Source: T1SED10-198M sp003554345 [NCBI: Candidatus Sumerlaeota bacterium]
GTDB lineage: Bacteria > Sumerlaeota > T1SED10-198M
Length of the DNA stretch: 5,104 nucleotides
Assembly (NCBI GenBank): GCA_003554345.1
Contig: PWGE01000219.1
Coordinates: 1-5,104 of the forward strand
Direction: 5' to 3'
The position numbers were made by a program, and so were the translations under genes. Shown here piece by piece: positions 1 through 4,688 of this stretch; the first letter of the stretch is position 1; every line of letters starts with the position of its first letter. Under the pieces are notes generated by a model. It had not been told where the DNA came from. It saw nothing but the letters and a program-made list of their open reading frames with translations, and did no database searches.

Positions 1-237
1 ATGTTACATTTCAGCCAGGTGTTTCCCATACCTCCCGCTGCTATAAATTATCTGAAAAAGGCAGGTAAAACCATTATTGTTGAAAATAATTATGGCGGTC
101 AATTGAAAAAACTTCTCAAACTGTACGCCGATTTTGAAGTGGACCATGAGATATTGAAGTATAATGGACTGCCTTTTTCTGTTGAGGAGCTGTCTCTTCA
201 ACTGGATGAAATAATCGATGGAGGAAATGATTCATGA
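1..237 (+). CDS. korA: 2-oxoacid:ferredoxin oxidoreductase alpha subunit, C-terminal fragment (5' end outside window)
   Basis: This is the last 78 codons of the alpha (or fused gamma-alpha) subunit of a 2-oxoacid:ferredoxin oxidoreductase, which decarboxylates a 2-oxoacid to its acyl-CoA and passes the electrons to ferredoxin. The visible part matches the family's C-terminal domain. It opens with MLHFSQVFPIPP (usually 'LHFS.VWPLPP'), followed by the KTIIVENNYGGQLKKLL segment (residues 23-39; family 'VENN.tGQ...L') and the closing ILKYNGLPFSVEEL (residues 52-65; family 'ilKydGrPft.eEi'). The ATG at base 1 is almost certainly an internal Met, because this domain normally follows several hundred residues, so the gene is cut by the window edge. 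Its stop overlaps the next start as ATGA, which implies translational coupling. The substrate (2-oxoglutarate, 2-oxoisovalerate or another) cannot be told from this fragment. Confidence 0.88.
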   Translation: MLHFSQVFPIPPAAINYLKKAGKTIIVENNYGGQLKKLLKLYADFEVDHEILKYNGLPFSVEELSLQLDEIIDGGNDS

Positions 238-1094
238 GTCAAACAAAATACGATATGACAGGTATTGACATTGCATGGTGCCCAGGTTGTGGTAATTTTG
301 CTATCTTAAAGACTCTCAAGCAGACATTATATTCCCTGGAAATACCTTCGCAGGATCTGGTCATGGTTTCCGGAATAGGACAGGCGGCCAAGACCCCCCA
401 GTATATGAAGTGTCATTACTTTAATGGCCTGCATGGGAGGGCTTTGCCGGTGGCTACCGGTATTAAAGCAGCGAATCCGCAGTTGAAGGTGGTTGTGGAA
501 AGCGGTGATGGCTGTATGTATGGAGAAGGAGGAAATCATTTTCTTCATGCTGTGAGAAGAAATCCGGATATTACATGCCTGGTCCATAATAATATGATTT
601 ACGGCCTGACAAAAGGTCAGGCTTCACCGACCAGTGCCACAGGAATTCAGACTCCAGTGCAGGTACAGGGTAATCATCCTCGGCCCTTTAACCCTGTAAG
701 TGTGGCATTGTCACTGGGTGCGACTTTTGTCGCCCGGGCTTTTTCGGGAGATATAGAAAAAACTTCAAAGATTATGAGTGCTGCACTGCAGCATAGGGGT
801 TTTGCCCTGGTGGATATCTTCCAACCCTGTGTTACCTTTAATAAAGTTAATACCTATCAATGGTTTAAAAAGAATACCTATTACCTGCCTGATGATCACA
901 ACACAAAGGATCTTTCTGCTGCTTTTAAGGTGGCCATGGAAACGGACAGGTTCGGCCTGGGGATTCTCTACCAGGGGTCAGAAGAAGAAACTTTTGAGGA
1001 CGCTACCTGCGGCAGTAAGGATGACATTGCTCCCTGGCAGAGAAAAAGAGATATGAAAAAAGTAGAAAACCTGGTAGCATCTTACTCCTTATGA
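234..1094 (+). CDS. korB: 2-oxoacid:ferredoxin oxidoreductase beta subunit (thiamine diphosphate-binding)
   Basis: This 286-residue catalytic subunit binds thiamine diphosphate and an Fe-S cluster, and works with the upstream alpha subunit in the cytoplasm to oxidise a 2-oxoacid with CoA and ferredoxin. The visible marks are the N-terminal cluster motif WCPGCG (15-20, Cys16 and Cys19), the HGRALPVATG segment (68-77), the GDG of the ThDP/Mg site (91-93) with YGEGGNH after it (96-102), and NNMIYGLTKGQASPTS (119-134). A further conserved Cys199 lies in QPCVTFN. The length is normal for the family. The position usually occupied by a third cluster Cys (GIGC) is Gln50 here (GIGQ); Cys60 lies close by and may replace it. 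The start is supported by GGAGG at 220-224, nine bases upstream. The gene overlaps both neighbours by four bases. Substrate specificity is not resolved; 'kor' is used as the common name of the two-subunit type. Confidence 0.93.
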   Translation: MSQTKYDMTGIDIAWCPGCGNFAILKTLKQTLYSLEIPSQDLVMVSGIGQAAKTPQYMKCHYFNGLHGRALPVATGIKAANPQLKVVVESGDGCMYGEGGNHFLHAVRRNPDITCLVHNNMIYGLTKGQASPTSATGIQTPVQVQGNHPRPFNPVSVALSLGATFVARAFSGDIEKTSKIMSAALQHRGFALVDIFQPCVTFNKVNTYQWFKKNTYYLPDDHNTKDLSAAFKVAMETDRFGLGILYQGSEEETFEDATCGSKDDIAPWQRKRDMKKVENLVASYSL

Positions 1095-1528
1095 AGAAAT
1101 CATCCTGTTCACGGGAAGATATTCGCTTCCTTTTTATCAGGAAGGGCTATGAAAGAGATATTCTTCAGTTGTATTATCAGGAGAAATGGATAAAGCCTGA
1201 GGAACATGTATCTATACCGGATATCAGGAAGGTCATAGAGGGTTCATTTGCTTTTCTGGTAGCTGTAGATGGTTCCCGTGCGATTGGTATGGCGCGGGCT
1301 CTTTCTGATGGTTATAGTGATGCCTATATCCAGGACGTGGTGGTATGCAATGCCTATCAGGGATGCGGTATCGGAAAAAAACTGGTATCTCTTCTGGTGG
1401 AGTATTTAAAAAAAGAAGGTATTGACTGGATAGGTTTAGTGGCCAAACCGGGTACCCGGCAATTCTACAGGAAGCTGAATTTTGAGGTTTTGAAGGACCA
1501 TTATCCCATGCAGTTGAGAAAACAGTGA
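1091..1528 (+). CDS. GNAT-family N-acetyltransferase
   Basis: This 145-residue protein is the size of a single GNAT domain, a fold that transfers an acyl group from acyl-CoA to an amine. The acetyl-CoA pyrophosphate-binding motif A is clear at residues 89-99 (YQGCGIGKKLV, the Q-x-x-G-x-G pattern), preceded by strand beta4 (IQDVVVCNAY, 80-89). The C-terminal motif GTRQFYRKLNFE (121-132) is the usual alpha4-beta7 region with the Tyr often acting as general acid (Tyr126). The segment AIGMARALSDGYSDAY (64-79) is the typical beta2-beta3 hairpin. The gene starts inside the korB stop (ATGA) with no clear Shine-Dalgarno sequence, so translation probably depends on coupling. The acceptor is unknown. 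The position between an Fe-S oxidoreductase and an Fe-S assembly pair gives no firm hint; protein or small-molecule acetylation are both possible. Confidence 0.88.
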   Translation: MKKSSCSREDIRFLFIRKGYERDILQLYYQEKWIKPEEHVSIPDIRKVIEGSFAFLVAVDGSRAIGMARALSDGYSDAYIQDVVVCNAYQGCGIGKKLVSLLVEYLKKEGIDWIGLVAKPGTRQFYRKLNFEVLKDHYPMQLRKQ

Positions 1529-2424
1529 CAGATTTATTCAAACCCCTTACTTTAGAGGATCGACCTCTTTTTAATGATTATCTTTCCCGATATTCCGGTT
1601 ATCACAGTGAATACAATTTTGCCACTCTCTTTATCTGGAATAGCGTCTATCAATATAAATGGGCGATTATAGATAAGGCGCTGGTTATCTGGATATCCAC
1701 GCTGGATGTCCTTTTAATGCCTCTCGGGGTTTCTCTTACGGTTGAACGGTTAAAGGAGATTAGTGAACATTTCAGGGAAAAAGGCCATGATGTTCCCTTT
1801 ATCCTGGTTGAGCCTGCCGTGGTAGCTGAAATGCCGAAGATAAAAGAACATTTCAGTGTACGAAGAGAGAGGGAGTTAGCTGATTATATGTATAATACAG
1901 AGGACCTTGCTGAACTGAAGGGGCGCAAATACCAGAAAAAAAGGAATTTAATCAACCAGTTTGAGAGGAATTATCCTGAATATCACAGTAAAGAAATGGA
2001 TGAAAGCGTATTACATGAATACTGGCGCCTTGCAGAAAGATGGTGCCGGGAAACAGATTGTCATGAGGGTGACTTTGAAGAAGAGATGGCGGCATTGTCC
2101 AATGCCTTTAAGAATTTTCACGAACTTTCACTGGGTGGCGTCAATCTGTGTTCAGATGACCGGTTACTTGCTTTTTCTCTCTTCAGCAAGCAGAATCCCG
2201 AGATGTATACCGTTCACTTTGAAAAAACCGATCCACGAATAAAAGGAGTTGGCCAGGTTATTAACCGGGAAACTGCAAAGTACATTTTACATCATGATCC
2301 AGTCCCTTATATTAACAGGGAACAGGATCTGGGACGAGAAGGATTGCGTAAAGCAAAACGTTCTTATCATCCGGTCAGGATATATCAAACGGTACAATTG
2401 ATACCAAAACAAAAAATAGAATAA
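1525..2424 (+). CDS. DUF2156 protein, phosphatidylglycerol lysyltransferase C-terminal-like
   Basis: This 299-residue protein belongs to the DUF2156 family, whose double-GNAT fold is shared with the C-terminal catalytic domain of MprF (aminoacyl-tRNA to phosphatidylglycerol transfer). The family's N-terminal pattern is plain: FKPLTLEDRPLFNDYL (5-20) followed by EYNFATLFIWNSVY (29-42). The later hallmarks are DYMYNTEDLAELKGRKYQKK (120-139), FEKTDPRIKGVGQVINRE (232-249) and YINREQDLGREGLRKAKRSY (262-281). The membrane flippase domain of full MprF is absent and no transmembrane segment is evident, so this is a soluble stand-alone protein. It starts with GTG, overlapping the previous stop as GTGA. 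The family alignment begins right at this start, and the first in-frame Met is far inside the domain. No good ribosome binding site is seen, so coupling is likely. The substrate is unknown for this subfamily. Confidence 0.87.
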   Translation: MTDLFKPLTLEDRPLFNDYLSRYSGYHSEYNFATLFIWNSVYQYKWAIIDKALVIWISTLDVLLMPLGVSLTVERLKEISEHFREKGHDVPFILVEPAVVAEMPKIKEHFSVRRERELADYMYNTEDLAELKGRKYQKKRNLINQFERNYPEYHSKEMDESVLHEYWRLAERWCRETDCHEGDFEEEMAALSNAFKNFHELSLGGVNLCSDDRLLAFSLFSKQNPEMYTVHFEKTDPRIKGVGQVINRETAKYILHHDPVPYINREQDLGREGLRKAKRSYHPVRIYQTVQLIPKQKIE

Positions 2425-2428
2425 GGAG
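2423..2428 (+). promoter_or_regulatory. Shine-Dalgarno AAGGAG that sets the start of the SufC-like gene
   Basis: AAGGAG sits eight bases before the ATG at 2437. The alternative in-frame GTG at 2428 uses the last G of this site as its first base, so it cannot be served by it. The ATG is therefore the chosen start. The site also overlaps the stop codon of the preceding gene. Confidence 0.8.
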
Positions 2429-2436
2429 TGTCACGT

Positions 2437-3168
2437 ATGGGCATATTACAGGTGAAAGATGTCTCCCTGAAATTGGGGGACAAGAAGGTCCTGGAAAATC
2501 TTTCGATTGATTTCTGGGAGGGACATATCCATGCAGTCGTGGGACCAAATGGCGCCGGCAAATCTTCTCTTGCCTATGCCATGATGGGCTTACCTGAATA
2601 CCGCAACCATGAAGGAGATATTGTGATCGAAGGTTCTTCCATCAAATCCCTGCCTGTTGATGAAAGGGCCCGGCTGGGCATGTCGTTAGCCTGGCAGGAG
2701 CCAGCCCGCTATGAAGGCTTAAAGGTGGATACTTTTCTTAAAGCCGGTAGTCGGGGAAGTAGCCGGACCACTGATGAAGCTCTGGATATGGTGGGGCTGG
2801 AACCTGAAGTCTATAAATACCGGGCTGTGGATAAAACCCTGAGTGGGGGAGAAAGAAAACGTATTGAACTTGCTTCCATCCTGATGATGCAGCCTCGTAT
2901 TTTCCTCATGGATGAACCCGACTCCGGCATAGATATGTCGGCACTGCAGAAAATTTTTGAAGTTATTTCCATGCTGAAAAAACAGAACACGACCGTTATT
3001 CTTATCACCCACAGCCTTGAAGTGCTGCGCCATGCAGAGCATGCTTTTCTCATGTGTCATGGAAAGTTGATAGATAAGGGAACAGCCGATAAAATTATTT
3101 ATTACTTTGAAAATAACTGTCTGCCCTGTGATCACCAGAATCAACCACTGGAGGAAGAAATATCATGA
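2437..3168 (+). CDS. sufC: SufC-like ATPase of a minimal SufBC (SMS-type) Fe-S cluster assembly system
   Basis: This 243-residue ABC-class ATPase drives Fe-S cluster assembly on the SufB/SufD-like partner encoded next to it; it is soluble and not a transporter. It carries Walker A GPNGAGKS (36-43), Q-loop Gln87 in SLAWQEPARYEG, signature LSGGERKR (135-142), Walker B IFLMDE (155-160) followed by PDSGID, and H-loop His192 (ITHS). The EPDSGID D-loop is the SufC form, where transporter ATPases usually have EPTSGLD or EPTAGLD. The length is close to E. coli SufC (about 248). The ATG at 2437 is preferred over the in-frame GTG at 2428 because AAGGAG lies eight bases before it. A CLPC pair (Cys228, Cys231) near the C-terminus is not part of the SufC core as I know it. 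The stop overlaps the next start (ATGA), as expected for subunits of one complex. Confidence 0.92.
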   Translation: MGILQVKDVSLKLGDKKVLENLSIDFWEGHIHAVVGPNGAGKSSLAYAMMGLPEYRNHEGDIVIEGSSIKSLPVDERARLGMSLAWQEPARYEGLKVDTFLKAGSRGSSRTTDEALDMVGLEPEVYKYRAVDKTLSGGERKRIELASILMMQPRIFLMDEPDSGIDMSALQKIFEVISMLKKQNTTVILITHSLEVLRHAEHAFLMCHGKLIDKGTADKIIYYFENNCLPCDHQNQPLEEEIS

Positions 3169-4100
3169 GTACGAATAACTTTTTACAGGAAATTATAGAA
3201 TCACTGCCGGCGTCTCATCGTAATGTTATGGATAAGGATACCGCTCATCTGGTCATCCATCATAACGAAGTACTGGGTGCCCATCTTGTGCCGGGCCTGG
3301 ATGTTCAAGCAGAACCCATTGAAGATGGTGTCAATATTAAAATTCGGGTTGACAAGGGAACGGTTATTGAAAAGCCTGTACACATGTGTTTTGGTATGGT
3401 GCCTGAAGAAGGACTGCAAAAAATAATTATCAATGCTGTGATAGAAGAAGATGCTGCTATAGAGGTCCTTGCTCATTGTACCTTTCCTAATGCCATTGAT
3501 ATTACTCACCTCATGGATGCCACCATACATCTTGAAAGAAATGCCCGGTATTCTTACTTTGAGCGACATATTCACGGTATGAAGGGAGGCGTGAAGGTAG
3601 TACCCAAAGCAAAGGTGTATGTGGATGAGTATGCCCGTTTTAAAACGGAATTTGAGCTTATCAAGGGACTGGTGGGTGATATTGATATTTTTTATGAAGG
3701 ATTTGTCAAGCGCGAAGGTGTGATGGATATGATGGCTCGTATTTACGGCAGGGAAAATGATCGTATAAAAATCAATGAAACATGCCACCTGGAAGGAGAA
3801 TCGTCCCGGGGTGTTTTAACCTCGCATATTGCCTGCCGCGACCGGACAAATGCCAGTGTCTATAATACACTGACAGCCACCGCTCCTTTTGCCAGGGGGC
3901 ACGTGGACTGCAAAGAAATCGTACAGGAAAATGCCAGGGCAAAAGCTGTACCCATTGTAGAGGTGGCTCATCCTCAAGCCCATGTTACACACGAAGCAGC
4001 CCTGGGAAGTGTTGATTCCAAGCAGTTGCAGACTCTTATGAGCAGAGGGCTCACGGAAGATGAAGCAACTGAACTGATTATCCAGGGGTTATTGAATTAA
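3165..4100 (+). CDS. sufB: Short SufB/SufD-family Fe-S assembly scaffold (SMS-type)
   Basis: This 311-residue member of the SufBD family would form the beta-helix scaffold on which a nascent Fe-S cluster is built, powered by the adjacent SufC-like ATPase. The C-terminal core is diagnostic: GHVDCKEIVQENARAKAVP (245-263), VAHPQAHVTHEAALGSVD (267-284) and LMSRGLTEDEATELIIQGLL (291-310). Cys249 followed 27-28 residues later by His276-Glu277 matches the catalytic Cys405 and His433-Glu434 of E. coli SufB, with one residue less between them; SufD lacks that Cys. The protein is much shorter than classical SufB (about 470-495 residues), missing most of the N-terminal region. Other cysteines are 75, 105, 207 and 224. 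GGAGG at 3150-3154 supports the start. No sufS, sufU, sufE or sufD follows, so the pair fits the two-gene SMS type; the sufB symbol is used by analogy. Confidence 0.9.
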   Translation: MSTNNFLQEIIESLPASHRNVMDKDTAHLVIHHNEVLGAHLVPGLDVQAEPIEDGVNIKIRVDKGTVIEKPVHMCFGMVPEEGLQKIIINAVIEEDAAIEVLAHCTFPNAIDITHLMDATIHLERNARYSYFERHIHGMKGGVKVVPKAKVYVDEYARFKTEFELIKGLVGDIDIFYEGFVKREGVMDMMARIYGRENDRIKINETCHLEGESSRGVLTSHIACRDRTNASVYNTLTATAPFARGHVDCKEIVQENARAKAVPIVEVAHPQAHVTHEAALGSVDSKQLQTLMSRGLTEDEATELIIQGLLN

Positions 4101-4103
4101 ATT

Positions 4104-4688
4104 ATGACTGTTTTAAAAAAAATGCGGACCCCGGTTTTCTATGCCGAAGGATTGCCGGGCTCCATGAAGAGAGAGGATTATACTTTACGGATAAAGTGGG
4201 ACGATGGTACACAAACGGTCTCTTTTTCAGAAATTGAAGCAATGCCTCTGGTGACTGTGAATGCCCGTCTCACGTCGGTCAGTGGTTTTAGTGTACGAGC
4301 TGACTGGCAGGGTGTACGCTGGCCGGATTTTGCACGCCTCTGTAATATTCCCCGCTTTCCCTTTGTGGAATTTAAAAGCTGGTCTTTTTATACTTCTTGC
4401 CTGTCGTGGGAGGAACTGGAATATGAAAAAGTGCTTCTCTGCTATAAAGTGGGTGGCGAGTACCTGGAGAAAGAATATGGAGCACCGCTCCGCTTATTTG
4501 TTCCTCATCGCTGGGGGTACAAAAGCGTGAAGGGCCTGGCGGAAATACAACTCCTGGAAAAGTATCGTTCTGGCTACTGGGAAGAACGAGGATACAGTGA
4601 TAGCGCTTACATCGAACCAGGTACCACTTATGATGTGAATTCGGGTTCTTATAAGCCAATGAATGGGGGAGAGGTCACTGAATTTTAA
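4104..4688 (+). CDS. Small sulfite-oxidase-fold molybdopterin-binding protein with Cys-to-Ser change at the metal ligand
   Basis: This 194-residue protein consists of one oxidoreductase molybdopterin-binding domain (sulfite oxidase / MsrP / YuiH fold). It has no signal peptide or membrane segment, so it should be cytoplasmic. The pterin-binding C-terminal block is well kept: YGAPLRLFVPHRWGYKSVKG (125-144), with His135, Arg136, Lys140 and Lys143, then GYWEERGYS (157-165). The N-terminal block NARLTSVSGFSV (53-64) and WQGVRWPDFARL (68-79) aligns with the family pattern 'R.hCVtgWS ... W.GV.w.dll', but the Cys that binds molybdenum through sulfur is Ser58. Cys80, Cys99 and Cys113 lie elsewhere. 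The gene begins three bases after the previous stop with only a distant AGGGG (4084-4088), so it is probably coupled. The reaction is unknown. It may be an enzyme with altered metal ligation, or a protein that binds the pterin cofactor without classical sulfite-oxidase chemistry. Confidence 0.85.
   Translation: MTVLKKMRTPVFYAEGLPGSMKREDYTLRIKWDDGTQTVSFSEIEAMPLVTVNARLTSVSGFSVRADWQGVRWPDFARLCNIPRFPFVEFKSWSFYTSCLSWEELEYEKVLLCYKVGGEYLEKEYGAPLRLFVPHRWGYKSVKGLAEIQLLEKYRSGYWEERGYSDSAYIEPGTTYDVNSGSYKPMNGGEVTEF

What the first reader, a model, noticed from the sequence alone, without database searches (positions are those of the whole stretch)
4275..4277. Ser in place of the molybdenum-binding Cys in a sulfite-oxidase-fold protein
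The pterin-binding C-terminal block (PHRWGYKSVK, residues 134-143) is intact. The codon for the residue that normally supplies the thiolate ligand to molybdenum is TCG (Ser58, in LTSVSGFS, against the usual hCVtgWS). The surrounding residues align well, so this does not look like a misalignment. The protein may use Ser ligation, bind a metal-free or different cofactor, or have a non-redox role. Its place directly after an Fe-S scaffold gene raises the idea of a sulfur- or cluster-related function.
Basis: partly seen in the sequence, partly recalled or inferred. Interest (0 to 1): 0.6.

Follow-up and report, generated by a model that had tools for sequence, protein, structure and literature searches.

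The report
Sulfite-oxidase-fold clade with fixed serine
A small bacterial protein shaped like sulfite oxidase carries serine where its relatives use cysteine to hold molybdenum, and this swap is fixed in a whole family, so it may hold its cofactor in a new way or have stopped using the metal.

Summary
ORF 4104-4688 encodes a 194-residue protein of the sulfite oxidase (SUOX) fold (PF00174), and codon 4275-4277 (TCG) puts Ser58 where relatives have the Mo-ligating Cys. It is not a sequencing error. Twenty-two intact proteins from 22 genomes form one clade (support 100/99); all 22 have Ser there, written TCN in 14 and AGY in 8. All 25 Cys-type relatives in the same tree have Cys. Two more active-site positions differ: Tyr125 in 22/22 (His in 23/25 Cys-type rows) and Ser/Thr60 in 22/22 (Glu in 18/25). 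Arg130, Lys140 and Lys143 are kept. None of the window's three Cys is conserved. The suf neighbourhood is not conserved: no SufB relative found in 22 other loci. MoaA is found in 16 of 18 carrier genomes tested, but the window's own draft genome shows none of five Moco-related families tested. Most likely this is a cytosolic protein that binds a molybdopterin-type cofactor with Ser58 in the ligand place. A metal-free pterin-binding role, as in PruR, is the main rival. New variant of a known kind.

The parts
4104..4688 (+). Ser-type SUOX-fold protein, 194 aa, 22.5 kDa, no obvious signal peptide or membrane helix
   Evidence: PF00174 E 2e-21; AlphaFold2 pLDDT 95.8, pTM 0.91; YedY/MsrP 188 residues aligned, rmsd 2.4, Z 21.8; hydropathy
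4275..4277 (+). TCG, Ser58, in the place of the Mo-ligating Cys
   Evidence: 22/22 Ser in clade, 25/25 Cys in relatives
4281..4283 (+). AGT, Ser60: Ser/Thr in the clade, most often Glu in Cys-type relatives
   Evidence: S 14, T 8 of 22; Glu 18 of 25; in the wider set Glu 28, Thr 11, Ser 1 of 47
4476..4478 (+). TAT, Tyr125, in the place of the His of the xHG motif (position 283 of the chicken sulfite oxidase chain)
   Evidence: Tyr 22/22; His 23/25; mapping from the equal-length match 109-166 to 267-324 of 1sox
4491..4493 (+). CGC, Arg130, conserved cofactor-site residue
   Evidence: Arg 22/22 and 24/25
4521..4532 (+). Lys140-Ser141-Val142-Lys143; Lys143 maps to Lys301 of chicken sulfite oxidase
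   Evidence: Lys140 and Lys143 in 47/47 rows of A3; mapping; Lys301 H-bonding role in PMC10673323 (passages)
3165..4100 (+). SufB/SmsB-like Fe-S scaffold (neighbour, not conserved with the gene)
   Evidence: PF01458 E 3.5e-16; best NCBIfam SUF_like_SmsB, below its cut-off
2428..3168 (+). SufC-like ABC ATPase (neighbour)
   Evidence: TIGR01978 E 2.4e-50, below its cut-off
234..1094 (+). 2-oxoacid:ferredoxin oxidoreductase beta subunit (first identified gene of the tightly packed run)
   Evidence: TIGR02177 343.9 bits, cut-off 261.9

Best explanation
This is a member of a distinct, monophyletic Ser-type clade of small, apparently cytosolic SUOX-fold proteins. The clade keeps the full-length fold (by a predicted model) and the cofactor-site Arg and Lys residues, but the metal's protein ligand has changed from Cys to Ser, together with Tyr for His at the pterin side and Ser/Thr for the usual Glu two residues after the ligand. 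Shown: the substitutions, their fixation, one clade, purifying selection, no common linked gene. Inferred: it binds a molybdopterin-type cofactor (Mo or W), with Ser58 as an alkoxide ligand or as a hydrogen-bonding residue beside a metal without protein ligand, and does redox chemistry on an unknown small substrate with a diffusible electron partner.
For: Ser58 22/22, in TCN (14) and AGY (8) codons, so Ser itself seems selected; dN/dS 0.055-0.33 in the 13 of 25 close pairs where dS could be estimated. Clade support 100/99. Tyr125 22/22 and Ser/Thr60 22/22; Arg130, Lys140, Lys143 and Tyr96 kept. Confident model aligning over residues 3-193 with YedY, while PruR pterin-binding structures align only within about 21-153. 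MoaA in 16 of 18 carrier genomes. PruR, which does not bind Mo, has Trp rather than Ser there (PMC13259868, passages).
Against: The window's own draft genome (88% complete) has no match for MoaA, MoaC, MoeA, the PF00384 molybdopterin oxidoreductases or AFOR. The engineered human C207S variant loses the Mo-S(Cys) Raman bands (PMC9370002, passages); that engineered Cys-to-Ser sulfite oxidases are essentially inactive is recalled, not from a call. The pterin-side His is also lost. No metal was seen; the model has no cofactor and no coordinates were available to me.
Confidence: 0.48

Rival explanations
1. A metal-free pterin-binding protein that works like PruR: it binds a reduced pterin or molybdopterin as a signal, carrier or structural ligand and is not a redox enzyme.
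For: PruR is a characterised SUOX-fold protein that lacks the Cys (Trp instead) and binds small pterins (PMC13259868, passages). The window genome shows none of five Moco-related families, and the contig's composition fits that genome (0.926; best of 42 foreign stretches 0.863). Tyr for His at the pterin side.
Against: No signal peptide by hydropathy. The model spans the whole SUOX fold, PruR only part of it. Lys140, Lys143 and Arg130 are fully kept and Ser58 is strictly invariant, where a lost ligand position might be expected to drift. 16 of 18 carrier genomes tested have MoaA. No diguanylate cyclase or sensor kinase among the seven same-strand genes of the window.
Confidence: 0.35
2. A decayed or non-functional sulfite oxidase relative: the Cys was lost and nothing replaced its function.
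For: One carrier (L039/L048, G087) has a broken copy, with an in-frame stop and an extra residue next to the Ser site.
Against: 22 intact genes with 31 invariant columns, low dN/dS in the 13 pairs that could be estimated, and a Ser codon-class change under invariance.
Confidence: 0.04
3. A factor of Fe-S cluster assembly or sulfur transfer tied to SufCB.
For: The gene lies 3 bp after sufB at the end of a tightly packed same-strand run in the window.
Against: No SufB relative found in any of 22 other loci.
Confidence: 0.06
4. Sequencing or binning artefact: a Cys misread as Ser, or a foreign contig.
For: The contig is only 5,104 bases and the bin is 4.3% contaminated.
Against: The same Ser in 21 other genomes; Cys TGY to TCG needs two base changes; composition fits the bin.
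Confidence: 0.02

Closest known systems
Sulfite oxidase (SUOX) family enzymes of PF00174: YedY/MsrP (1xdq, 1xdy), chicken sulfite oxidase (1sox), plant sulfite oxidase (1ogp)
   Same: Fold over residues 3-193/194 (Z 18.3-21.8), PF00174 above cut-off, Arg and Lys of the cofactor site, motif R-x-x-[C/S]-V-x-x-[W/F]-S.
   Different: Ser for the Mo-ligating Cys, Tyr for the pterin-side His (Asn in some YedY-like rows), Ser/Thr for the usual Glu two residues on, no obvious export signal, no heme or dimer domain in 194 residues.
PruR pterin-binding proteins (7KOS, 7KP2, 7KOM, 7RKB)
   Same: SUOX-type fold without the Mo-ligating Cys (structural match Z 13.5-14.0).
   Different: PruR has Trp in place of the Cys, a secretion signal, a truncated pterin site and a linked DcpA/DTB-type gene; here Ser, no signal, full-length fold and no such gene in the window.
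DMSO reductase family (Ser-ligated Mo)
   Same: Only in the idea of a Ser ligand to Mo (PMC9370002, passages).
   Different: Different fold and bis-pterin guanine dinucleotide cofactor (recalled).
Chicken sulfite oxidase C185S (3HBG, 3HBP)
   Same: The same Cys-to-Ser change, made by hand, and a structural match to our model.
   Different: Laboratory variant of one enzyme. Here the change is natural, fixed in a clade and accompanied by others.

Membership tests
PF00174 / SUOX-fold superfamily | Profile match above the curated cut-off | tested here: met
   76.8 bits against 24
PF00174 / SUOX-fold superfamily | SUOX fold | tested here: met
   Predicted model, pLDDT 95.8; 188 residues on 1xdy_G at 2.4 A, Z 21.8
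Cys-ligated sulfite oxidase family enzyme | Conserved Cys ligand to Mo | tested here: not met
   Ser58 in 22 of 22 clade members
Cys-ligated sulfite oxidase family enzyme | Bound Mo-molybdopterin | not testable with these tools
   Arg130, Lys140, Lys143 kept; no cofactor can be seen by sequence
MsrP/YedY | NCBIfam PRK05363 equivalog score | tested here: not met
   43 bits against a cut-off of 207
PruR pterin-binding protein | Loss of the Mo-ligating Cys | tested here: met
   Ser58; PruR definition from PMC13259868 (passages)
PruR pterin-binding protein | Trp in place of the Cys | tested here: not met
   Ser in 22 of 22
PruR pterin-binding protein | N-terminal secretion signal | tested here: not met
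   Highest 19-residue hydropathy 0.99, at residue 46, not at the N terminus; a simple hydropathy test on the window protein only
PruR pterin-binding protein | Operon with a DcpA or DTB-type gene | tested here: inconclusive
   None among the same-strand genes of the 5,104-base contig; not searched for systematically in the other loci
SUF-linked accessory protein | Recurrent neighbourhood with sufB/sufC | tested here: not met
   No SufB relative at E 1e-3 in 22 of 22 other loci of 3.6-16.6 kb

The most novel reading that the evidence does not exclude
A natural branch of the sulfite oxidase family holds a mono-pterin Mo or W centre through Ser instead of Cys, retuned by Tyr for His at the pterin and Ser/Thr for Glu next to the metal: an alkoxide-ligated SUOX enzyme with chemistry closer to oxo-transfer reductases. 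In the window's lineage it may even persist without endogenous Moco synthesis.
Probability: 0.28. Interest if true: 0.8.

Novelty: new variant of a known kind. Interest (0 to 1): 0.56.

Why it matters
The Cys thiolate is the hallmark of sulfite oxidase family molybdoenzymes. A natural clade with a fixed Ser gives a ready-made set of proteins for asking what that thiolate does, and whether a single-pterin centre can work with an oxygen ligand. If the clade is metal-free, it is another case, besides PruR, of the fold turned into a pterin binder, this time apparently cytosolic and found in deltaproteobacterial lineages, Negativicutes and Candidatus Sumerlaeota. Automatic annotation would probably call these proteins molybdopterin-dependent oxidoreductases, which may be wrong.

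Tried and rejected
Sequencing error: rejected, same Ser in 21 other genomes. Misalignment or another Cys as ligand: rejected on sequence, C80, C99 and C113 are not conserved. Suf link: rejected. Selenocysteine in the Cys-type paralogues flagged with an inner TGA (L049, L052): rejected, the stop is the gene's own end and the Cys is present upstream. Viral copies: one IMG/VR scan, 15 pattern matches, none confirmed. Ten paper searches were run; judged by the listings (titles and starts of abstracts) none describes a natural Ser-type SUOX clade; searches returned no paper. The 2008 review of the SUOX fold is not held and the DOI I recalled for the original PruR paper was not held, so prior description elsewhere is not excluded.

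Working errors: one search read minus-strand loci in the wrong direction, redone. Most was uninformative and was replaced. In one search two of the 20 own contigs (L104, L105) read as N and gave no value; one search left them out. In one search the Ser-type ORFs of L039 (broken), L040 and L108 were not picked as centre by my ORF filter, so their neighbourhoods were judged (L039, L040; all three).

Rows dropped before counts: A3 (47 rows) is a selection. One search read 71 rows, recounted: 24 Ser (L056-L058 repeat L033, L034 and L037) and 47 others, of which 44 have Cys at this column and 3 (L021, L022, L024) align with Val because of an insertion, with a Cys nearby. Of the 47 others 25 went into A3 and 22 were left out, long YedY-like and shorter ones alike. 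In the full set the contrasts are weaker at position 60 (others: Glu 28, Thr 11, Ser 1, rest 7 of 47) and at 125 (His 35, Asn 5, Arg 5, Gln 1, Gly 1 of 47), but Tyr125 occurs in none of the 47; Lys140 is Lys in 43 of 47. L120 was added to the Ser rows later. The broken L039/L048 was left out of A2-A4. In one search only 30 loci were fetched; weaker matches without a locus were not read.

Full report
Observation. ORF 4104-4688 (+) encodes 194 residues; codon 4275-4277 is TCG, Ser58. The protein matches PF00174 with 76.8 bits (cut-off 24) and reaches no NCBIfam cut-off (4 weak matches). In one search the segment R55-L-T-S58-V-S-G-F-S63 stands column for column over R-x-x-C-V-x-x-W-S of Cys-type relatives. 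It is the only PF00174 match in the window's own draft genome G000 (2.55 Mb, 454 contigs, 88% complete, 4.3% contaminated), of which the window is the whole contig C117.

The Ser is fixed in a clade. A first search of 81 genomes gave matches in 23, the own genome included; one other genome of the same phylum, G005, has a 42.7% identical protein that also has Ser. A scan of the genome collection (one genome for each of 84,980 species), with patterns that do not include the Ser position itself, gave 8 loci, all with Ser at this site; one of them (L039) is broken. A profile from the window protein and seven of these found, in 297 genomes of the phylum of G082, 16 matches at 195 bits or more, and then a gap down to 143.5 bits. 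All 16 loci above the gap read Ser and all 14 fetched loci below it read Cys. In 299 genomes of the phylum of G086 there were 2 carriers at E 1e-40, and in 297 of the phylum of G083, largely the same genomes as, 16 carriers and one further genome with a Cys-type match. Alignment A4 holds 22 intact proteins from 22 genomes, with 31 invariant columns. A maximum-likelihood tree of these with 25 Cys-type rows puts the 22 on one side of a branch with support 100/99. Named members come from deltaproteobacterial lineages including a Syntrophaceae bacterium, from Negativicutes and from Candidatus Sumerlaeota; one record is only called uncultured bacterium.

Selection. Ser58 is written TCN in 14 members and AGY in 8. 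These classes are not one base change apart, so Ser was regained through another residue, reached twice, or changed by a double step; each reading argues that Ser as such is wanted. Of 25 close pairs (over 72% identity), dN/dS is 0.055 to 0.33 in the 13 where dS could be estimated; in 12 the program gave no dS.

Other active-site changes. Position 125 is Tyr in 22 of 22, against His in 23 of 25 Cys-type rows of A3. In the wider set of 47 non-clade rows it is Tyr in none, His in 35, and Asn, Arg, Gln or Gly in 12. The match to chicken sulfite oxidase (query 109-166 to chain 267-324, equal lengths) maps Tyr125 to 283, Arg130 to 288 and Lys143 to 301; in plant sulfite oxidase the aligned residue is seen to be His. 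[quoted passage not shown] that the His is residue 283 is recalled. Position 60 is Ser or Thr in 22 of 22, against Glu in 18 of 25, but Thr also occurs in 11 of the 47 non-clade rows, so this change is less telling; by recall it is Glu104 of YedY. Kept in all 47 rows of A3: Tyr96, Lys140, Lys143, Trp159, Tyr164; Arg130 in 46. Thus the clade altered the metal side and one pterin contact but kept the rest of the pocket. The window's Cys residues 80, 99 and 113 are Cys in 2, 1 and 4 of 22.

Structure. AlphaFold2 with A3 gave pLDDT 95.8 and pTM 0.91. Best matches are YedY/MsrP (188 residues, 2.4 A, Z 21.8) and sulfite oxidases, including the C185S variant; PruR structures match with Z 13.5-14.0 within residues 21-153 only. 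So the model has the whole SUOX fold and not the shorter PruR form. No coordinates were available, so distances around Ser58 were not measured.

Genome context. In the window the gene ends a tightly packed same-strand run: an unassigned 78-aa ORF, 2-oxoacid:ferredoxin oxidoreductase beta subunit, GNAT acetyltransferase, PF09924 protein, SufC-like, SufB/SmsB-like, SUOX. In 22 other loci of 3.6 to 16.6 kb no SufB relative was found; 7 of them gave only ABC-ATPase matches to SufC at 23-29% identity. Some of these stretches hold the gene near a contig end, so one side is short. Small groups of relatives share other neighbours, none common to the clade. I therefore drop the Fe-S link.

Cofactor supply. 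MoaA (PF06463) is in 16 of 18 carrier genomes tested (one of the 18, G087, carries the broken copy); missing in G000 and G084. MoaC is in 6 of 9 and MoeA in 8 of 9. G000 has no match to MoaA, MoaC, MoeA, PF00384 (present in the 5 other genomes) or AFOR (present in 8 of 10, also absent from G005). Lack of MoaC is common in this phylum: 20 of 40 genomes have it. But single absences in drafts are weak evidence. G084 has no MoaA or MoaC match yet 11 PF00384 matches, G086 has no MoaC match yet 5, and two genomes of the window's phylum with Cys-type YedY-like proteins (G023, G024) also lack MoaC. G000 differs in lacking all five. The contig's tetranucleotide profile correlates 0.926 with 18 other G000 contigs (leave-one-out median 0.896, lowest 0.457), against at most 0.863 for 42 stretches of similar G+C from other genomes, so binning looks right. 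If so, this lineage keeps the Ser-type protein without visible Moco synthesis, which favours a metal-free pterin role there, or scavenging.

Mechanism. I favour a molybdopterin-type cofactor with Ser58 at the ligand position (0.48) over a metal-free PruR-like role (0.35). For the former: strict Ser, full pocket, MoaA in 16 of 18 carriers. For the latter: the G000 result, the lost pterin-side His, and the precedent of PruR, where the Cys is Trp (PMC13259868, passages). The C207S variant of human sulfite oxidase loses its Mo-S(Cys) Raman bands while the dithiolene bands stay (PMC9370002, passages), so a protein with Ser at this site can still hold the pterin dithiolene.

Novelty. The listings of ten paper searches showed no natural Ser-type SUOX clade. 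The 2008 review of the fold is not held, so earlier mention is possible. I call it a new variant of a known kind.

Noticed in passing
L039 8001-8564 / L048: The Ser-type gene of a Selenomonadales genome is broken by an in-frame TAA and carries an extra residue beside the Ser site; either a pseudogene or an assembly error.
   Followed up: partly
window 1-4688: Seven same-strand ORFs with overlaps or gaps of a few bases join a 2-oxoacid:ferredoxin oxidoreductase, a GNAT protein, a PF09924 protein and a short SufCB-like pair: a possible Fe-S-enzyme and cluster-assembly operon.
   Followed up: partly
L112, L114, L116: A small protein cluster (cl 13, by its sequence perhaps a flavin-binding pyridoxamine-oxidase-like protein, not tested) lies next to or within one gene of the Ser-type gene in three genomes of the AGY sub-clade.
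   Followed up: no
L033, L034, L036: Relatives share a neighbourhood with a UbiA-like membrane protein and two proteins of unknown kind; L033 and L034 also a ketoacyl-synthase-like gene (L036 ends before that point) (names by eye).
   Followed up: no
L087 (G000 contig C2): This contig's tetranucleotide profile correlates only 0.457 with the rest of the bin; it may be foreign or a mobile element.
   Followed up: no
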